From: Bradymonas sediminis
GTDB lineage: Bacteria > Myxococcota_A > Bradymonadia > Bradymonadales > Bradymonadaceae
DNA length: 64,000 nucleotides
NCBI RefSeq assembly: GCF_003258315.1
Contig: NZ_CP030032.1
Coordinates: 1,750,001 to 1,814,000 of the forward strand
Direction: 5' to 3'
Shown here piece by piece: positions 30,624 to 38,161 of this stretch. Numbering within the stretch: position 1 is the first letter of the stretch; each line of letters starts with the position of its first letter. Below the pieces are notes generated by a model. The model made no database searches. It saw nothing but the letters and a program-made list of their open reading frames with translations, and was not told the DNA's origin. The translations under genes were made by a program, and so were the position numbers.

Positions 30624-31400
30624 CTATTTCGCCAGCCCACGCGCGACCATTTCCTGGGCAATATAGCTGGCGACATCCGGCGCAGTGGTGCGCGGGCCAA
30701 AGCCTGCGTCGAAGCCCAACTCCAGCGCCAACTCATGCGAGATGCGCGGTCCGCCGGCGACCACGAGCAGGTCCTGGCGGATGCCTTCGGCCTCGAGCAT
30801 ATCGATGAGCTCGGCGAGGTTCTTGATGTGGACGTCCTTCTGGGTGACGACCTGGCTGACCAGCAGGGCGTCGGCTTTCTTCTCAATCGCGTGGGCGATG
30901 AGATCCTCGTTGAGCACCTGCATGCCGAGGTTATATGCGTTGATCATGGGGTAGCGCTCCAGGCCGTATTCGCCCGAATACCCCTTCATATTCATGATCG
31001 CGTCGATGCCCACCGAGTGCGCGTCGGTGCCGGTGCAGGCGCCTAGGACCGTAATCTTTCGCCCGATTTCGGCCTCGATATAGGCGTTGATTTCATAGAA
31101 ATCCATGCGCTCGGTTTCGATCTGCGCGACCTTAATCTTGGTGAAATCAAGGGTCTGCGTGAAGCGCGCGTACACGATAAAATAGGTGTAGCCCTCGCCG
31201 AGGTCCTGGCTGTGGTAGACCTTCGGGTCTTCAAGGCCCATCTTCAGCGCGACCTGGCGGGCCGCCTCGCTGGCTTCGGGGCCGTAGGGGACGGGCAGCG
31301 TGTACGAGAGCTGCACCTGTCCGTCATCGAGGGTGTCGCCGTAGGGGCGGACGCGGGTCAGGTCGGCTGGAGTGGCGCCTGTTCGGCCGGTGGTTTTCAT
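30624..31400 (-). CDS. kamE: lysine 5,6-aminomutase beta subunit
   Basis: Adenosylcobalamin-binding subunit of D-lysine (or ornithine) aminomutase, which moves the terminal amino group by a radical mechanism in lysine fermentation. The 258-residue protein carries the base-off cobalamin motif DAHSVG (His 128) and, 11 residues later, NMKG (Lys 139). The spacing equals the axial His 133 and PLP-binding Lys 144 of the Clostridium enzyme. Also present are the dimerisation part (VYHSQDLGEGYTYFIVYARF), LLVSQVVTQKDVHIKNLAEL and GGPRISHELALELGFDAGFG. The start ATG 31400 is preferred; a longer reading has no conserved residues. The alpha subunit gene (kamD), normally adjacent, is not in this window. 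Confidence 0.92.
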   Translation of the reverse strand: MKTTGRTGATPADLTRVRPYGDTLDDGQVQLSYTLPVPYGPEASEAARQVALKMGLEDPKVYHSQDLGEGYTYFIVYARFTQTLDFTKIKVAQIETERMDFYEINAYIEAEIGRKITVLGACTGTDAHSVGIDAIMNMKGYSGEYGLERYPMINAYNLGMQVLNEDLIAHAIEKKADALLVSQVVTQKDVHIKNLAELIDMLEAEGIRQDLLVVAGGPRISHELALELGFDAGFGPRTTAPDVASYIAQEMVARGLAK

Positions 31401-31563
31401 GGCAAAGGCTTCGCGCGAAGGAGTCGATGATGGCGGTAATATGGTCAAATAATTGAACTGGTCGTTGGGGCCGGGCGTGTATATAAAACGCAACTGCGGA
31501 CCTGGCCAACGCTTTATTTTACATAGCGATCATGGGTCGAAATCACAACCCTGGAGGATTCGG

Positions 31564-32125: not shown

Positions 32126-32755
32126 TTAGACCACGCGGCGTCGGCCGGTCTTCTCGACGAACCCGTCGGGCAGCACGGAGTCGGTGATTGACATCGCGCT
32201 CAGATAGCAGCTCGACGCTTGGCAGGCGCTCAGATCCACATCTTTGAGCTCCATCTCGCGCAGGGTCACGAAGCGCATCTCGCCGCCGGTCGGGACGACG
32301 TCGTGCCAGTGGCCGCCCTTAAAGGTGACGCGCTCGAAATTATAGTCCGGCCCGATCAGCTTCTCGAGGGTACAATCGTTGAATTGCGAGTCGGTCCACT
32401 CGGGGAATACAAAGTTGCATTCTTTAAATTCGCAGCGACTCAGGGTCGAGGCGTCCAGGGAGAAGTCATCGCCCTCCACGCCCTCGAAGGTGCAATTGAG
32501 CAGCGTGCAGCTGTGGACGTAGGTGCCGTTGAGCACGCAGCCGTCGAAGCGGCATTCGGTGAGGGTGCATTCCTCGAAGGCGACATTGGACAGGTCGATG
32601 CCCGAAAAGTCGAAACCGGCCAGGTTCTGGCCCGAAAAACTTGCCATCTCGAGGCTCGGCAACTCCCCGTGTTCTTCCTCGTGCTTCTCGACCGCGCGAT
32701 GGAACTTTTTGGCGTTTCCGGTCTTAACTAATTTGCTAAGTTCGTTCGAAGACAT
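32126..32755 (-). CDS. pentapeptide-repeat protein
   Basis: A 209-residue protein with a helical N-terminus (SSNELSKLVKTGNAKKFHRA) and about 25 consecutive pentapeptides, pattern A(D/N)LxF or F/L at the centre (FSGIDLSNVAFEECTLTECR and so on), which should form a right-handed quadrilateral beta-helix. It ends with LPDGFVEKTGRRR. The sequence lacks a signal peptide and has many Cys residues in the repeats. ATG 32755 is chosen (AGGAAG upstream). A second pentapeptide protein at 34837 has a similar N-terminal helix and an ELPDGF tail, so the two may be paralogues. No binding target is known. Confidence 0.88.
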   Translation of the reverse strand: MSSNELSKLVKTGNAKKFHRAVEKHEEEHGELPSLEMASFSGQNLAGFDFSGIDLSNVAFEECTLTECRFDGCVLNGTYVHSCTLLNCTFEGVEGDDFSLDASTLSRCEFKECNFVFPEWTDSQFNDCTLEKLIGPDYNFERVTFKGGHWHDVVPTGGEMRFVTLREMELKDVDLSACQASSCYLSAMSITDSVLPDGFVEKTGRRRVV

Positions 32756-33062
32756 GTGCCCGAGCTTCCTGAAAAAAGGAATAAAGTAGTTTATGGGTGC
32801 TGGTGAATCGGGTGTTTTGCGACTTTCGATCAAATAACGTAAGGTCGGCTCAACCCACAAGCGCACTTCGACTAGCGCATTTGACGGTGACTCGTCCAGC
32901 CGTGTTGGCCCAGGCGCATAAAAAAGATCATTGAATCACGCTTGGGGGCTCGATGGCGAGTATTTTTGACCAGGCCTGCAGCCGTTGCACGCTTTGATCG
33001 TCGCGCTATGATTGTGTTTGTTTCAACTTTGTCTGCACGGTTCATTTTAAGGTGGGCACGAT
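32756..33062. other. divergent intergenic region
   Basis: About 307 bases between the pentapeptide gene and the exported TPR protein gene, transcribed away from each other. It should hold two promoters; none is clear enough to mark. The only recognisable signal is the AAGGTGG ribosome site of the gene at 33063. Confidence 0.4.
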
Positions 33063-33926: not shown

Positions 33927-33950
33927 GCCCGCGTGCCTGCCGGCTTATTT
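33921..33950. terminator. hairpin containing the stop codons of two convergent genes
   Basis: AAATAAGCC (33921-33929) and GGCTTATTT (33942-33950) form a 9-bp stem. The plus-strand TAA (33924-33926) and the minus-strand TAA (33947-33945) lie inside the arms. Each strand has TTATTT after the GC core, so it is a plausible bidirectional terminator. Confidence 0.6.
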
Positions 33951-34202
33951 CCCGCCATGAAAGCCGCCGCCGGGCCGGCGCGACCCCACGTTTCGGATCC
34001 CGGGGCTGCGGTAAAAGATCATATAATACCCGCCATAATAGGTGCGCCGGGTGCTAGTCGAGTTCTCGGCGCCGCCATCATCAACCACCGGCTTGTCGAC
34101 CCCCCAGCCGGCCGTCGAGGCCGACACGGTCAACGCGATGAGGCTGATTCCGATAAAGCTGAGCAGGGCCAGTGAGCCCGCGCTTCCTGATTTGATACTC
34201 AT
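33945..34202 (-). CDS. tiny membrane protein with Gly-rich tail (DUF4178/SpeE cluster)
   Basis: 85 residues: one hydrophobic helix (LALLSFIGISLIALTVSAST) near the N-terminus, then an extracytoplasmic segment with many Gly/Tyr/Ser (RTYYGGYYMIFYRSPG, RRPGGGFHGGK at the end). GGAGTGGA precedes ATG 34202, and it follows the two-TM protein gene after 38 bp on the same strand. The existence of a gene this short is supported by the ribosome site, the operon position and the sensible membrane topology. Small Gly-rich TM proteins of this kind occur beside DUF4178 proteins in other genomes as far as I remember. Function unknown. Confidence 0.65.
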   Translation of the reverse strand: MSIKSGSAGSLALLSFIGISLIALTVSASTAGWGVDKPVVDDGGAENSTSTRRTYYGGYYMIFYRSPGIRNVGSRRPGGGFHGGK

Positions 34203-34240
34203 AAATCCACTCCAAATTGCCGGCGCCTGGCGCCCATGGC

Positions 34241-34837
34241 TTAAGCGAGAAAGTCCTGGCGGAACTGCGCCGCGCGCTCGTTTTCTCGGTCGTCCGTGGT
34301 GAGTTTTTTTGCGCGCAAACTCAGCAGCAAGAATAGGATGAAGCCGAGCAGGAAATAGCGCGTTAAAACGACGCCTGATTGGATCTCTACCTCGAGTTTG
34401 TCTCCCGAGATGTCGCGCGGGCCGTTGAGTTGGGTCTGCTCATTTTCCCCGTAGACCAGGACTTTATATTCGCCCGCAGGCAGCCGAAAGATCCAGTCGT
34501 CGCTGCGATTCCCCTCCGACCAGTCGGGGCCGTGATAATAGGAGAGATCGAAGTCGTGCTCTTGGATTGCGATATCTTCGGTGTCGAGGATGACCGTCTT
34601 GACCCATACCCACGAGTTATTGAGGGTGCTCCCGGTGATCTTCATCGTCAGGGGGCCGTCTTTGTCCTGAGTGAATCGAATCGGCGGGGTTTTGACCTGC
34701 TCTTGGCCGAAGACCCGTTCAGGGACCTCGACCGACACGATCGGCGCCCCGCTAAAATGGGACCAGGTCATCAGCACGCCGAAGATTAGGGTCATCGCGA
34801 CGCTAAAGATGAGGAGTTGCTGGTTTCGACCTTTCAT
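34241..34837 (-). CDS. two-TM protein with extracytoplasmic beta-domain (DUF4178/SpeE cluster)
   Basis: 198 residues: N-terminal TM helix (LLIFSVAMTLIFGVLMTW), an external beta-sandwich-like part (PIRFTQDKDGPLTMKITGST, LNNSWVWVKTVI, DFDLSYYHGPDWSEGNRSDD, FRLPAGEYKVLVYGE) and a C-terminal TM helix (YFLLGFILFLLLSLRAKKL) with a short cytoplasmic tail. The motif YYHGxxWSEG is distinctive, and I recall similar proteins beside DUF4178 genes. ATG 34837 shares a base with the TGA of the pentapeptide gene (TGATG), so the two are translationally coupled. Function unknown. Confidence 0.78.
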   Translation of the reverse strand: MKGRNQQLLIFSVAMTLIFGVLMTWSHFSGAPIVSVEVPERVFGQEQVKTPPIRFTQDKDGPLTMKITGSTLNNSWVWVKTVILDTEDIAIQEHDFDLSYYHGPDWSEGNRSDDWIFRLPAGEYKVLVYGENEQTQLNGPRDISGDKLEVEIQSGVVLTRYFLLGFILFLLLSLRAKKLTTDDRENERAAQFRQDFLA

Positions 34838-35775
34838 CAACCGTCTCCCTTGGTATCCTCATCGGATGGCTTCGCGTCGGCATCGGCCGCGGCGCTGGCT
34901 TCGCTGAGCCACTCGGCGAAGCCGTCGGGCAATTCATTGCCCTGAATGTCGAGATCCTCGACGCCCAGCGCCTCAAAGACCGCGGTTTTGAGCGATGCGT
35001 TCTTCATGCTGACCTGGCGAAGGGACGCGGCGACCAGCCACCATCCGTCGCCTTTCACCTCGTCGAGGGTGGCGTCCTGGATGCTGGCGGCGCTGAAGTC
35101 GGCCTCGCTCAGATTCGCCTTGCTCAGGTCGACGTTGTGGAAGGCAGCGGCCGAGGCGTCGGCCTCGCTCAGATCGCACTCGCGCATGTCGACGTCCGAG
35201 AAGGTCGCGCCGCTGAGGTCCGCGCCGTGCATGTCCGCGCCGTTCAGCGTGGTCTCGCCGACCGAAGCGCCCGCGAAGATCGTCTCGCGAAGGTTCGCCC
35301 GGCTCAGGTCGACGTCGTAGACCGCCGCGCCGCTGAAATCAGCCTCCAGGAGCGTGGCGTCCACCGCGTCGAGGTCGTTTAGGTGTGCGCCCGAGAAGTT
35401 CGCTTCGGTTAAATCAGCGCCATTTAGCGTGATATTGTTGAGCGTCGCCCCGGCGAAGCTCGCCTCGGTGAGCACGGCGTTGCTAAGGTCGACGTTGTCG
35501 AGGTCTGCGCCGGCGAAATTCGCCTCTTTTAGGAGCGCGCCACTGAGGTCTGCGCCGTGCAACTCAGCCCCCGCGAAGTTGAACTCCCGAAGGTCCTCGC
35601 CGCGGGCGACGGCTGCCTCGAGATCTTCGATGCTCAAAGATTCTTCTTCGTCTGCGTCCGAATCCTCTTCAAGATCCGAATCCTCTTCAAGGTCCGAGTC
35701 TTCGTCGATGCCGAAGTCCTCCTCGATGGTTGAATCAACAGAATCAGCGGTCTTCTGGGGGGCTTTTTCGCTCAT
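34837..35775 (-). CDS. pentapeptide-repeat protein with acidic N-terminus (DUF4178/SpeE cluster)
   Basis: 312 residues. The N-terminal 50 residues are acidic with a DSDLEE repeat, followed by a helix (SIEDLEAAVARGEDLREF) and about 30 pentapeptides of A(D/N)LSG/F type (GAELHGADLSGALLKEANFA and on) forming a long quadrilateral beta-helix. The end is GNELPDGFAEWLSEASAAAD plus an acidic tail. No signal peptide, so cytoplasmic. It sits 33 bp after the DUF4178 gene and overlaps the next gene by one base, so it belongs to the five-gene operon. Its role there (scaffold, partner for a membrane protein) is unknown. Confidence 0.88.
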   Translation of the reverse strand: MSEKAPQKTADSVDSTIEEDFGIDEDSDLEEDSDLEEDSDADEEESLSIEDLEAAVARGEDLREFNFAGAELHGADLSGALLKEANFAGADLDNVDLSNAVLTEASFAGATLNNITLNGADLTEANFSGAHLNDLDAVDATLLEADFSGAAVYDVDLSRANLRETIFAGASVGETTLNGADMHGADLSGATFSDVDMRECDLSEADASAAAFHNVDLSKANLSEADFSAASIQDATLDEVKGDGWWLVAASLRQVSMKNASLKTAVFEALGVEDLDIQGNELPDGFAEWLSEASAAADADAKPSDEDTKGDG

Positions 35776-35808
35776 GATTTAGGCTCCACTTGGGATTTCA
35801 CGTGTCGA

Positions 35809-36423
35809 TCAGGTGAGGATATTATCACCGGGAAAGACGGTTAGTTCGGATTCATCGAGAGCGATGCCTGTCGAGACTTCGAGATCGCCGTCCCAATCCT
35901 CCACTGACAAGTATTTGCCGCTGTCACTCTCATACTCAAAATACTCGACCGGGCAGTCCACCGCGCGCCCGGTGCGCCCGATGCTCTGGGCGGTCGCCTT
36001 TCCGCGCTCTTGGAGTTCATAGGACTCGCCCTGGTATTCAATCAGCGCCGGGGGCGGCGACGGGAGCGGGAGGCCTTTAACCTCCTTCCATAGCGAGAGC
36101 TCAAGGCCTTCGTCTTCCTCCACGCTAAGCCAGATCTTCTTATCCCCGTCCTCGAGCATAAAGGAATACCACTCCCAGCCGCCCTGACGATAAGTGGTGC
36201 GGCCTTCAACCGAATAATCGTTGTCGTAATAGACAATAATGTCGTTGAGGCGCAGGTCAGTGAGTGCGCGCTCGCCATCGCTGGTGAGTTGTTGGGCGGG
36301 GCCGCGGAAGTCGCTCGTCAGCGCGCGCGACGCCCTGGGTTCTTTGCGTGACCCGCGCGTGGCGACGTAAGCGATGCCGCCGCCGACGACGAAGGCCAGG
36401 GTGATCAGGATAAATGCGGACAT
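35809..36423 (-). CDS. DUF4178 protein, single membrane helix (DUF4178/SpeE cluster)
   Basis: 204 residues: N-terminal TM helix (AFILITLAFVVGGGIAYVAT) and a cytoplasmic or periplasmic DUF4178 domain with its hallmark strands LRLNDIIVYYDNDYSVEGRT, YRQGGWEWYSFMLEDGDK, WLSVEEDEGLELSLWKEV and VEYFEYESDSGKYLSVEDWD. The biochemical role of DUF4178 is not established. The domain is repeatedly found beside SpeE-like aminopropyltransferases, as here: the SpeE-like gene lies upstream on the same strand with 154 bp between. The downstream pentapeptide gene starts 33 bp later. Confidence 0.88.
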   Translation of the reverse strand: MSAFILITLAFVVGGGIAYVATRGSRKEPRASRALTSDFRGPAQQLTSDGERALTDLRLNDIIVYYDNDYSVEGRTTYRQGGWEWYSFMLEDGDKKIWLSVEEDEGLELSLWKEVKGLPLPSPPPALIEYQGESYELQERGKATAQSIGRTGRAVDCPVEYFEYESDSGKYLSVEDWDGDLEVSTGIALDESELTVFPGDNILT

Positions 36424-36577
36424 GCTCGGCTCGCTTCGGGGGACAAATTTCGGTGATGAAAATGGGGATATTAAGCCGTCGTTGGCCTTAACTATGAATT
36501 GAAAGAGGCACTTCCGCGCGACAATACGCTGGCTGCAGCTAGATGGTCAATTACGGCCTGTCGACAGCCTGCGCCCA

Positions 36578-38161
36578 TCAGCGGAAATAGGACTTCCAAT
36601 CTTCCTGGTAATAGCGCACGAGCACCTGGTCATCGAGGCGGTTAATCTCGGTCGGGATCTCTTTGGTATCTTCCGAGAAAAGGAAGTGACTCTCGAAATT
36701 CTCCTGGGTGAGGTAGCGCGTCTTCTCGGTGAGCCGCCACTGGCTCAGGTCGATGGTGCGCGGGGAGAAGAGTACAAAGCCCCATTCGCCAAATGACGGG
36801 ACGTAGGTATGCATGGCGCGCGCGTCGAGGGTTTCGCCCAGGTGGGCGGGGTGCTCGACGCTTCGGATCGTGTGGTAGATGCACCAGAAGCTTCGGCGCG
36901 CCAGATAGGGCGCGGTCGCCTGAGTGATGGCGTAGCCGGAGCCCGACAGGTGGCGCGACAGCAGCCGGTAGAAACTGCGCGAATATAATTTGCTCAGGCT
37001 CGTGTCGTTGGGGTCTGGGAAGTCGATGATGATGCGGTCGTAGGGCGCGTCGGCGGCGTGCTCCTCCAAAAAGATCTGGGCGTCCATATTATAGATGGAG
37101 ACCCGGTCGGCGTGCAGCGCGTCCTCGTTGAGCGCGCGCAGCATCGGCTGCTCACTAAAGAGACGTGTCATCTCGGGGTCAAGATCCACCAGGTCGACCT
37201 GTTTAACGTCGGCGTATTTGAGGACCTCCCGCACGGCCATGCCGTCGCCGCCGCCGAGCACCAGGACGCGCTCGCGCTTGCCGGGCATGCCCATGACGCT
37301 GTGCACCAGCGAGTCGTGGTAGCGATACTCGTCGATGCTCGAGAATTGCAGGTTGCCGTTTAGATACAGGCGCAGGTCGTCGCGCCAGCGGGTCAGGACC
37401 ATGCGTTGGTATTTGGTGTCGGTCGCGTAGATGATCTGGTTTTGGTAGAGGCTCGACTCAAACCAGTGCACGAATCGATGGCTGCCCGCCAGACCACCGG
37501 CGAGCAGGAGCGCGGCGAGCACCGCGGTGGCGATGGTGGTGCGCGGTTTTTTCAGGTGGTCGCGCAGGATGATGCAGCACACGATCGCGACCACGACGTT
37601 GAGCAGGCCGGTGAAAAACGCGGTCGCCAATTGCCCGAGATACGGCAGCAGCACCAAGGGAAAGACGAGTGAGGCGATCAGCGCGCCCAGATAATCCAAC
37701 CCCAGCACGGCAGAGACATTAAACTCGAGCGCCAATTCATCTTTGAGGAGCCGGATAACCAGCGGGATCTCCATGCCAATAAAGATGCCGATGAGCCCGC
37801 AGACCGCGTATAAAACGGCGGTATAATAGGCGAGGTGCACGAAGGCGAAGAAGAGGGCGAAGGCCGAGAACCCCCCGAGGAACCCGACGGCGACCTCCAC
37901 GCGCACGAAGACGTCGAGCAGATCCTCTTTGACCCATTGCGACAAAAACGCCCCGATGCCCATCGCCGCCATAAATACGCCGACGACCAGCGAGAATTGC
38001 AGGATCGCCGCGCCCACAAGGTACGATGAGATCGTGCCGGCCAATAATTCGTAGACCAGGCCGCAGTTGGCGATCACAAAGACCGACCCCAGCAGCACGA
38101 TGCTCTGGGTCTGGGTGCGAGACTTCTCTTGGCGGCTTTTCTTAACTTCGCGGTCTGACAT
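36578..38161 (-). CDS. membrane-anchored spermidine synthase-like protein (SpeE fold)
   Basis: 527 residues. The N-terminal half has seven or more TM helices (SIVLLGSVFVIANCGLVYEL and following), and the C-terminal half is an aminopropyltransferase-type Rossmann domain: YQNQIIYATDTKYQRMVLT, LYLNGNLQFSSIDEYRYHDS, VLVLGGGDGMAVREVLKY (SAM/dcSAM site), VDLVDLDPEM, YDRIIIDFPDPND. The DxxDPxDx catalytic region reads DFPDPND. Family members with TM helices fused to SpeE differ from cytosolic spermidine synthase and may act on membrane substrates or lack polyamine activity. First gene of a five-gene set ending at 33945. No speD is nearby. Confidence 0.9.
   Translation of the reverse strand: MSDREVKKSRQEKSRTQTQSIVLLGSVFVIANCGLVYELLAGTISSYLVGAAILQFSLVVGVFMAAMGIGAFLSQWVKEDLLDVFVRVEVAVGFLGGFSAFALFFAFVHLAYYTAVLYAVCGLIGIFIGMEIPLVIRLLKDELALEFNVSAVLGLDYLGALIASLVFPLVLLPYLGQLATAFFTGLLNVVVAIVCCIILRDHLKKPRTTIATAVLAALLLAGGLAGSHRFVHWFESSLYQNQIIYATDTKYQRMVLTRWRDDLRLYLNGNLQFSSIDEYRYHDSLVHSVMGMPGKRERVLVLGGGDGMAVREVLKYADVKQVDLVDLDPEMTRLFSEQPMLRALNEDALHADRVSIYNMDAQIFLEEHAADAPYDRIIIDFPDPNDTSLSKLYSRSFYRLLSRHLSGSGYAITQATAPYLARRSFWCIYHTIRSVEHPAHLGETLDARAMHTYVPSFGEWGFVLFSPRTIDLSQWRLTEKTRYLTQENFESHFLFSEDTKEIPTEINRLDDQVLVRYYQEDWKSYFR

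What the first reader, a model, noticed from the sequence alone, without database searches (positions are those of the whole stretch)
33945..38161. Five-gene membrane cluster built around DUF4178 and a SpeE-like protein, here with a pentapeptide-repeat protein
Seen: a multi-TM SpeE-like protein, a TM-anchored DUF4178 protein, an acidic pentapeptide-repeat protein, a two-TM protein with a YYHGxxWSEG beta-domain and an 85-residue TM/Gly-rich protein run in one direction; the last four are within 40 bp or overlapping. Known (from memory): SpeE-like and DUF4178 genes recur together, often beside DUF350 or PspA-type envelope-stress genes, and their joint function is not established. Inference: a membrane-surface complex in which the SpeE-like enzyme modifies a membrane substrate, with the pentapeptide protein as a lineage-specific partner. 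No DUF350 or PspA gene is present.
Basis: partly seen in the sequence, partly recalled or inferred. Interest (0 to 1): 0.62.

Follow-up and report, generated by a model that had tools for sequence, protein, structure and literature searches.

The report
Membrane aminopropyltransferase cluster with Gly-Gly-Lys peptide
This is a rearranged, stripped-down version of a known bacterial envelope gene set built around a membrane-bound spermidine-synthase-like enzyme whose substrate is unknown; its smallest gene belongs to a family of secreted tails ending in (Gly)Gly-Lys that sits beside this enzyme across several phyla, so the tail is a concrete candidate for the missing substrate.

Summary
The five genes are real, all on the minus strand. 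They are a rearranged member of the membrane-SpeE/DUF4178 system that Ravi et al. 2024 describe beside PspA. In 284 phylum genomes membrane-SpeE and DUF4178 co-occur in 66 of 71. DUF350 and the Tat amine oxidase were not found in this genome; the PspA-CesT/Tir pair lies elsewhere. The two-TM "YYHG..WSEG" protein is the detached extracytoplasmic domain of the large DUF4178 proteins. The pentapeptide protein has no equivalent in 75 other loci.

New point: the 85-residue protein belongs to an unnamed family of secreted tails ending in (Gly)Gly-Lys. A Gly-rich ...GK tail lies beside membrane-SpeE in 55 of 76 loci, on free peptides, on unrelated lipoproteins, or fused to DUF4178. Controls: 0 of 2098 ORFs at ligase loci; 7 of 6855 opposite-strand ORFs. 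In E. coli the corresponding lipoproteins end in Gly-Gly beside peptide-spermidine ligases. Loop charges in 73 of 73 homologues put the SpeE domain outside, with the tail.

Best mechanism (inferred, about 40%): dcSAM-dependent aminopropylation of the C-terminal lysine. No activity has been shown. New variant of a known kind.

The parts
36578..38161 (-). Membrane-anchored SpeE-like aminopropyltransferase (527 aa): about 7 TM helices (aa 20-228) followed by a spermidine-synthase domain (aa ~240-475)
   Evidence: PF01564 93.7 bits, NF002956 622.6 bits against cut-off 472; hydropathy and loop charges over 73 homologues; donor-site motif GGGDG and D380 of D-F-P-D-P retained
35809..36423 (-). Single-TM-anchored DUF4178 protein, predicted cytoplasmic domain
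   Evidence: PF13785 112.8 bits; positive charges directly after the TM (sequence)
34837..35775 (-). Pentapeptide-repeat protein with acidic N-terminus, lineage-specific insertion
   Evidence: PF00805 136.7 bits; absent from the 75 other SpeE-TM loci; no ortholog-level hit in 20 other family genomes
34241..34840 (-). Two-TM protein with an extracytoplasmic beta-sandwich carrying YYHGxxWSEG; detached TM2 domain of the large DUF4178 proteins
   Evidence: 33% identity, E=1.6e-28, to the TM2 half of a TM2-DUF4178 fusion in L020; TM2 HMM found in 46 loci; AlphaFold pLDDT 72, TM - 8 strands - TM
33945..34202 (-). 85-aa GGK-tail peptide: N-terminal signal/TM segment, Gly-rich exported tail ending in Gly-Gly-Lys
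   Evidence...GK tail family beside SpeE-TM in 55 of 76 loci; no Pfam or NCBIfam family
33948..33956 (-). Codons of the C-terminal Gly-Gly-Lys, the proposed modification site
   Evidence: sequence; conservation

Best explanation
The locus is a rearranged, minimal member of the membrane-SpeE/DUF4178 envelope system. Proposed mechanism: the SpeE-like enzyme, with decarboxylated SAM (dcSAM) from the genome's SpeD as donor, transfers an aminopropyl group to the side-chain amine of the C-terminal lysine of the exported GGK-tail peptide. That lysine stands in for putrescine/cadaverine, and the result is a polyamine-tailed peptide at the outer face of the inner membrane. The two-TM beta-sandwich protein and the membrane-anchored DUF4178 protein would form the transmembrane scaffold or sensor that links this surface to the cytoplasm and, in other bacteria, to PspA. 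The pentapeptide protein would be a local cytoplasmic adaptor. Shown here: the gene set, the homologies, genome-level co-occurrence, conservation of the (G)GK tail, loop-charge topology and retained donor-site residues. Inferred: that the tail is the substrate, that lysine is aminopropylated, that this happens outside the cytoplasm, and the roles of the DUF4178, TM2 and pentapeptide proteins. Rough confidence by layer: membership in the system 0.95; tail functionally tied to SpeE-TM 0.75; SpeE domain outside 0.65; lysine aminopropylation 0.4.
For: 1) A Gly-rich tail ending in GK lies on the SpeE strand within 4.5 kb in 55 of 76 SpeE-TM loci, 36 of them with exactly GGK within 3.5 kb. GK-ended ORFs: 58 of 5643 same-strand against 7 of 6855 opposite-strand (p=1e-13, not corrected for relatedness); Lys codons 29 AAA / 28 AAG; 0 Gly-rich GK tails among 2098 ORFs at GSP_synth loci. 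Several further loci keep a C-terminal Lys without GK. 2) The tail sits on different carriers: free 50-100-aa peptides, Ser/Arg-rich proteins (L107, L113, L120, L121), a lipoprotein (L067), or fused to DUF4178 (L115, L117, L139, L148-L151). 3) E. coli YjfM and YgiB end in ...WGG and ...MGG next to genes annotated peptide--spermidine ligase (activity paper Pederick 2023 cited in PMC12568646). 4) SpeD lies in 14 of the loci; own genome has SpeD and a separate canonical SpeE. 5) GGGDG and D380 conserved, while acceptor-side residues differ from the own canonical SpeE (D-F/L-P-D-P; T in place of E at 416). 6) K+R in loops 2+4+6 = 9.67 against 1.75 in loops 1+3+5, same sign in 73 of 73; GK carriers charge bias 21:0; Tat-type motif in 32 of 36 amine oxidases. 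7) SpeE-TM and DUF4178 co-occur in 66 of 71 genomes.
Against: No activity has been shown for any of these enzymes in the sources read. dcSAM is made in the cytoplasm; a periplasmic SpeE domain would need a route for it. Topology rests on charge bias; the AlphaFold model of SpeE was too poor to use. About 16 of 76 SpeE-TM loci show no K-ended tail nearby, and alphaproteobacterial peptides can end in HK or VK, not GK. DUF350 and the amine oxidase were not found in this genome, so they cannot be required here. A conserved C-terminal Lys also fits other chemistry, such as peptidoglycan attachment.
Confidence: 0.4

Rival explanations
1. SpeE-TM makes a small-molecule or lipid aminopropyl product (or polyamine) at the membrane; the GK-tail peptide, TM2 and DUF4178 proteins bind or sense it but are not modified.
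For: Closest characterised relatives act on small amines; NF002956 is named polyamine aminopropyltransferase; 16 or so SpeE-TM loci lack a nearby K-ended tail; Ravi et al. [quoted passage not shown]
Against: Does not explain a conserved C-terminal Lys on several different carrier proteins; own genome already has a separate canonical SpeD/SpeE pair.
Confidence: 0.3
2. The GK tail is an attachment site like the C-terminal lysine of Braun's lipoprotein: its epsilon-amine is linked to peptidoglycan or another polymer, and SpeE-TM modulates or blocks this.
For: A membrane-anchored exported peptide with a C-terminal Lys is the Lpp layout (established knowledge); carriers have N-in/C-out charge bias.
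Against: The tail is Gly-rich and tied genetically to SpeE-TM; no L,D-transpeptidase gene was noticed by eye in the loci read in full, though none was searched for by profile; G85 has no lipobox Cys.
Confidence: 0.15
3. The SpeE domain is cytoplasmic (TM7 does not cross) and modifies an intracellular substrate; the shared operon reflects only a common envelope-stress regulon with PspA.
For: dcSAM and SpeD are cytoplasmic; other parts of the system (DUF4178 with zinc-ribbon-like segments, SPFH, PspA) are cytoplasmic-side.
Against: Loop charges give the opposite orientation in 73 of 73 sequences; TM7 has a smoothed hydropathy as high as any other segment; the co-encoded amine oxidases carry Tat-type motifs, most with lipobox-like matches.
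Confidence: 0.15

Closest known systems
PspA-linked CesT/Tir - 7TM-SpeE - DUF350 - DUF4178 - lipoprotein operon (Ravi et al. 2024, PMC11237479)
   Same: 7TM-SpeE and DUF4178 proteins, a small exported protein, membrane setting
   Different: No DUF350 found in the genome; PspA and CesT/Tir about 1.17 Mb away; TM2 domain free-standing; pentapeptide protein inserted; the conserved C-terminal GK is not mentioned in the passages read
MFS-like/spermidine-synthase fusions linked to AdoMet decarboxylase (Li et al. 2019, Biochem J 476:2579; not held, content from memory apart from Ravi's citation)
   Same: Same fused enzyme class, SpeD and DUF350 neighbours in relatives
   Different: That work left the acceptor unknown (memory); here a conserved candidate acceptor is named
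E. coli YgiB-YgiC and YjfM-YjfC peptide--spermidine ligase pairs (Pederick et al. 2023, cited)
   Same: Membrane-anchored protein with Gly/Ser-rich C-terminus next to a polyamine-conjugating enzyme; DUF350 and PspA neighbours at yjf
   Different: ATP-grasp ligase and C-terminal Gly-Gly, versus aminopropyltransferase and C-terminal Gly-Lys
Diatom silaffins and eIF5A hypusine (established knowledge)
   Same: Polyamine-type extension of protein lysine side chains
   Different: Eukaryotic or cytoplasmic, other enzymes; no homology tested

Membership tests
Ravi group-2 PspA/7TM-SpeE/DUF4178 operon | SpeE domain fused to an N-terminal 7TM domain | tested here: met
Ravi group-2 PspA/7TM-SpeE/DUF4178 operon | DUF4178 gene in the cluster | tested here: met
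   PF13785 112.8 bits
Ravi group-2 PspA/7TM-SpeE/DUF4178 operon | DUF350 (YjfL) gene in the operon | tested here: not met
   No DUF350 over cut-off in the genome; the weak hit scores as DUF202
Ravi group-2 PspA/7TM-SpeE/DUF4178 operon | CesT/Tir-PspA dyad in the operon | tested here: not met
   Dyad exists at 2.957 Mb, not in the cluster
Ravi group-2 PspA/7TM-SpeE/DUF4178 operon | small lipoprotein (Ctha_1186 domain) | tested here: inconclusive
   G85 is an exported GGK-tail peptide without a lipobox; no model for Ctha_1186 was compared
Polyamine aminopropyltransferase (NF002956/PF01564) | Profile score over curated cut-off | tested here: met
   622.6 bits against 472; 93.7 against 22.9
Polyamine aminopropyltransferase (NF002956/PF01564) | dcSAM-binding GGGDG and catalytic Asp | tested here: met
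   G303-G307 and D380 conserved
Polyamine aminopropyltransferase (NF002956/PF01564) | aminopropyl transfer activity | not testable with these tools
   needs biochemistry
YjfC/YgiC-type peptide--spermidine ligase system | GSP_synth ATP-grasp gene (PF03738) | tested here: not met
   none in the own genome
YjfC/YgiC-type peptide--spermidine ligase system | partner protein ending in Gly | tested here: not met
   G85 ends Gly-Gly-Lys; E. coli YjfM and YgiB end Gly-Gly
Qnr/MfpA-type pentapeptide proteins | NCBIfam family cut-off | tested here: not met
   60.4 bits against 240 for Qnr; 54 against 360 for MfpA
Lpp-like peptidoglycan-anchored lipoprotein | C-terminal Lys | tested here: met
Lpp-like peptidoglycan-anchored lipoprotein | lipobox cysteine | tested here: not met
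   G85 contains no Cys

The most novel reading that the evidence does not exclude
Bacteria carry a widespread extracytoplasmic protein modification: a membrane-bound SpeE-like enzyme aminopropylates the C-terminal lysine of exported (G)GK-tail proteins, as a counterpart of the peptide--spermidine ligases that act on Gly-ended tails.
Probability: 0.33. Interest if true: 0.85.

Novelty: new variant of a known kind. Interest (0 to 1): 0.62.

Why it matters
The acceptor of the membrane-SpeE enzymes is an open question: Ravi et al. [quoted passage not shown] A short exported tail ending in (Gly)Gly-Lys that accompanies the enzyme in several phyla and on several different carrier proteins is a specific candidate acceptor, testable with one mass-spectrometry experiment. 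If right, it would define a new protein modification and connect polyamine chemistry to PspA-type membrane maintenance. The window itself adds a minimal variant without DUF350 and PspA in the cluster, which could simplify reconstitution.

Tried and rejected
AlphaFold of SpeE from the single sequence: pLDDT 43.6, not used. AlphaFold of the two-TM protein: pLDDT 72; Foldseek and VIA-align give only generic beta-sandwich matches, best Z 8.6. Profile comparison of the window TM2 with the N-terminal domain of the L019-L024 DUF4178 proteins gave only 22% probability; the link rests instead on L020 and on the phylum-wide TM2 matches. Genome-contig scan with TM2: one locus; viral-contig scan with SpeE: none. 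DUF350 hit in the own genome rejected as DUF202. Pentapeptide protein as a Qnr/MfpA gyrase protector rejected on scores. Promoter and terminator scans at chance level, so one or two transcripts cannot be told apart. Phylum-wide exclusion of SpeE-TM and GSP_synth: none (8 genomes have both); it holds only within the family, where the four ligase genomes are one genus. Li et al. 2019 is not held.
Full report
Observation. The five ORFs exist as described, all on the minus strand. Profiles identify the SpeE-like (PF01564; NF002956 622.6 bits against a cut-off of 472), DUF4178 (112.8 bits) and pentapeptide (136.7 bits) proteins; the two-TM and 85-aa proteins match no Pfam or NCBIfam family over cut-off. 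The last four genes are within 38 nt or overlap; the SpeE gene is 154 nt upstream of DUF4178, with promoter- and terminator-like sites only at chance frequency. The genome is a single 5.05-Mb contig.

Own-genome context. SpeD and a canonical SpeE lie together at 1.56 Mb, so the membrane enzyme is a second, separate aminopropyltransferase homologue. PspA with a CesT_Tir_1 protein lies at 2.957 Mb. The only weak DUF350 hit is a DUF202 protein. No match was found for the operon-type amine oxidase (a search without a positive control) or for the peptidyl-polyamine ligase family PF03738.

Relatives. In 21 genomes of the family, SpeE-TM and DUF4178 occur in exactly the same 11 genomes, linked or not. 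In 284 phylum genomes, 66 of 71 SpeE-TM genomes have DUF4178 against 16 of 213 without SpeE-TM (genomes are not independent). Reading 75 further loci from the phylum and from plasmids/chromids of Gemmatirosa, Novosphingobium, Tritonibacter, Ensifer, Burkholderia and Alteromonas gives a frequent order DUF4178-DUF4178-TM2, GK peptide, DUF350, SpeE-TM, amine oxidase, with SpeD in some (Novosphingobium annotation). The window's two-TM protein is the free form of the TM2 domain that in most relatives is fused to DUF4178: the fusion in L020 matches at 33% identity, E=1.6e-28, and TM2 was found in 46 loci. The model is TM helix, eight strands, TM helix, with only generic beta-sandwich matches. The pentapeptide gene occurs in no other locus and has only repeat-level matches in the family; a paralogue-like gene lies at 32126-32866.

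The tail. The 85-aa protein ends GGGFHGGK. Scanning C-termini around SpeE-TM in 76 loci, GGK was the most frequent same-strand terminal tripeptide (36 loci) with one case on the opposite strand. Gly-rich tails ending in GK were found in 55 of 76 loci, and in 48 of 56 loci that have DUF4178 or TM2 on the same strand. Some of the rest keep a terminal Lys: L057 ...FHK, L064 ...SHK, L065 ...RVK, L133 ...YSK; L139 has ...GGGK on an opposite-strand DUF4178 protein. Controls: GK-ended ORFs 58 of 5643 same-strand and 7 of 6855 opposite-strand (p=1e-13, not corrected for relatedness); no Gly-rich GK tail among 2098 ORFs in 30 ligase loci of the same phylum. Both Lys codons and all four Gly codons are used, so selection is on the amino acids. 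The tail sits on free peptides, on Ser/Arg-rich proteins in L107, L113, L120 and L121, on a lipoprotein in Alteromonas, or at the end of DUF4178 proteins after a TM. The SpeE tree puts the family's genomes in three separate places, and each of the three groups has its own tail carrier. The passages of Ravi et al. that were read do not mention this tail, and Pfam and NCBIfam have no model for it.

E. coli parallel. YjfM ends ...ARGHWGG and YgiB ...SRSMGG, each followed by a gene annotated peptide--spermidine ligase; the activity paper is cited in PMC12568646. In the family's genus g13, which lacks SpeE-TM, PF03738 genes are next to ORFs ending ...SGGGGG. This suggests, but does not prove, two solutions to one end: a Gly-ended tail joined to spermidine, or a Lys-ended tail extended by an aminopropyl group.

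Enzyme and topology. GGGDG, D328, D380 and Q414 are conserved in 70-73 of 73 homologues; the motif is D-(F/L)-P-D-P and position 416 is never acidic where the own canonical SpeE has Glu. This fits an intact donor site with a changed acceptor site (inference; other aminopropyltransferases in the PDB also lack that Glu). Seven hydrophobic segments precede the domain; K+R average 9.67 in loops 2+4+6 and 1.75 in loops 1+3+5, same sign in all 73, which predicts N-in and an external SpeE domain. Tail carriers show more positive charge before the hydrophobic segment in 21 cases and after it in none. Of 36 amine-oxidase neighbours 32 carry a Tat-type motif, most with a lipobox-like match (simple patterns). 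The weak point is donor supply: dcSAM is cytoplasmic.

Judgement. Membership in the known system is secure although two defining neighbours (DUF350, the PspA dyad) are not in the cluster, so it is filed as a variant. The link between the GK tail and SpeE-TM is the main new result. Lysine aminopropylation is the mechanism I favour at about 40%; small-molecule products and an Lpp-like attachment are the rivals. The role of the pentapeptide protein is the least certain part; a local cytoplasmic adaptor is my guess.

Noticed in passing
window 32126-32866 (-): A second, more degenerate pentapeptide-repeat protein 1.1 kb beyond the cluster, sharing the ...LPDGF.E C-terminus with the cluster's pentapeptide protein.
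   Followed up: partly
L015 8672-9687 (+) and L016 8136-9164 (-): In two family genomes a stand-alone TM-anchored DUF4178 gene is followed directly by a small J-domain (HPD) protein.
   Followed up: no
L014 105-2633 (+): In G002 the DUF4178 gene is followed by a potassium-channel-like protein with ligand-sensing (RCK/TrkA-N-like, by eye) domains; Ravi et al. mention such a channel in a related operon.
   Followed up: no
L020 5424-6797 (+): TM2-DUF4178 fusion followed directly by a GGK-tail peptide, with no SpeE gene on the contig.
   Followed up: partly
L115, L117, L148-L151: DUF4178 proteins with zinc-ribbon-like segments, a single TM and their own C-terminal GGK tail.
   Followed up: partly
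window 30624-31493 (-): Looks by eye like a lysine 5,6-aminomutase subunit.
   Followed up: no
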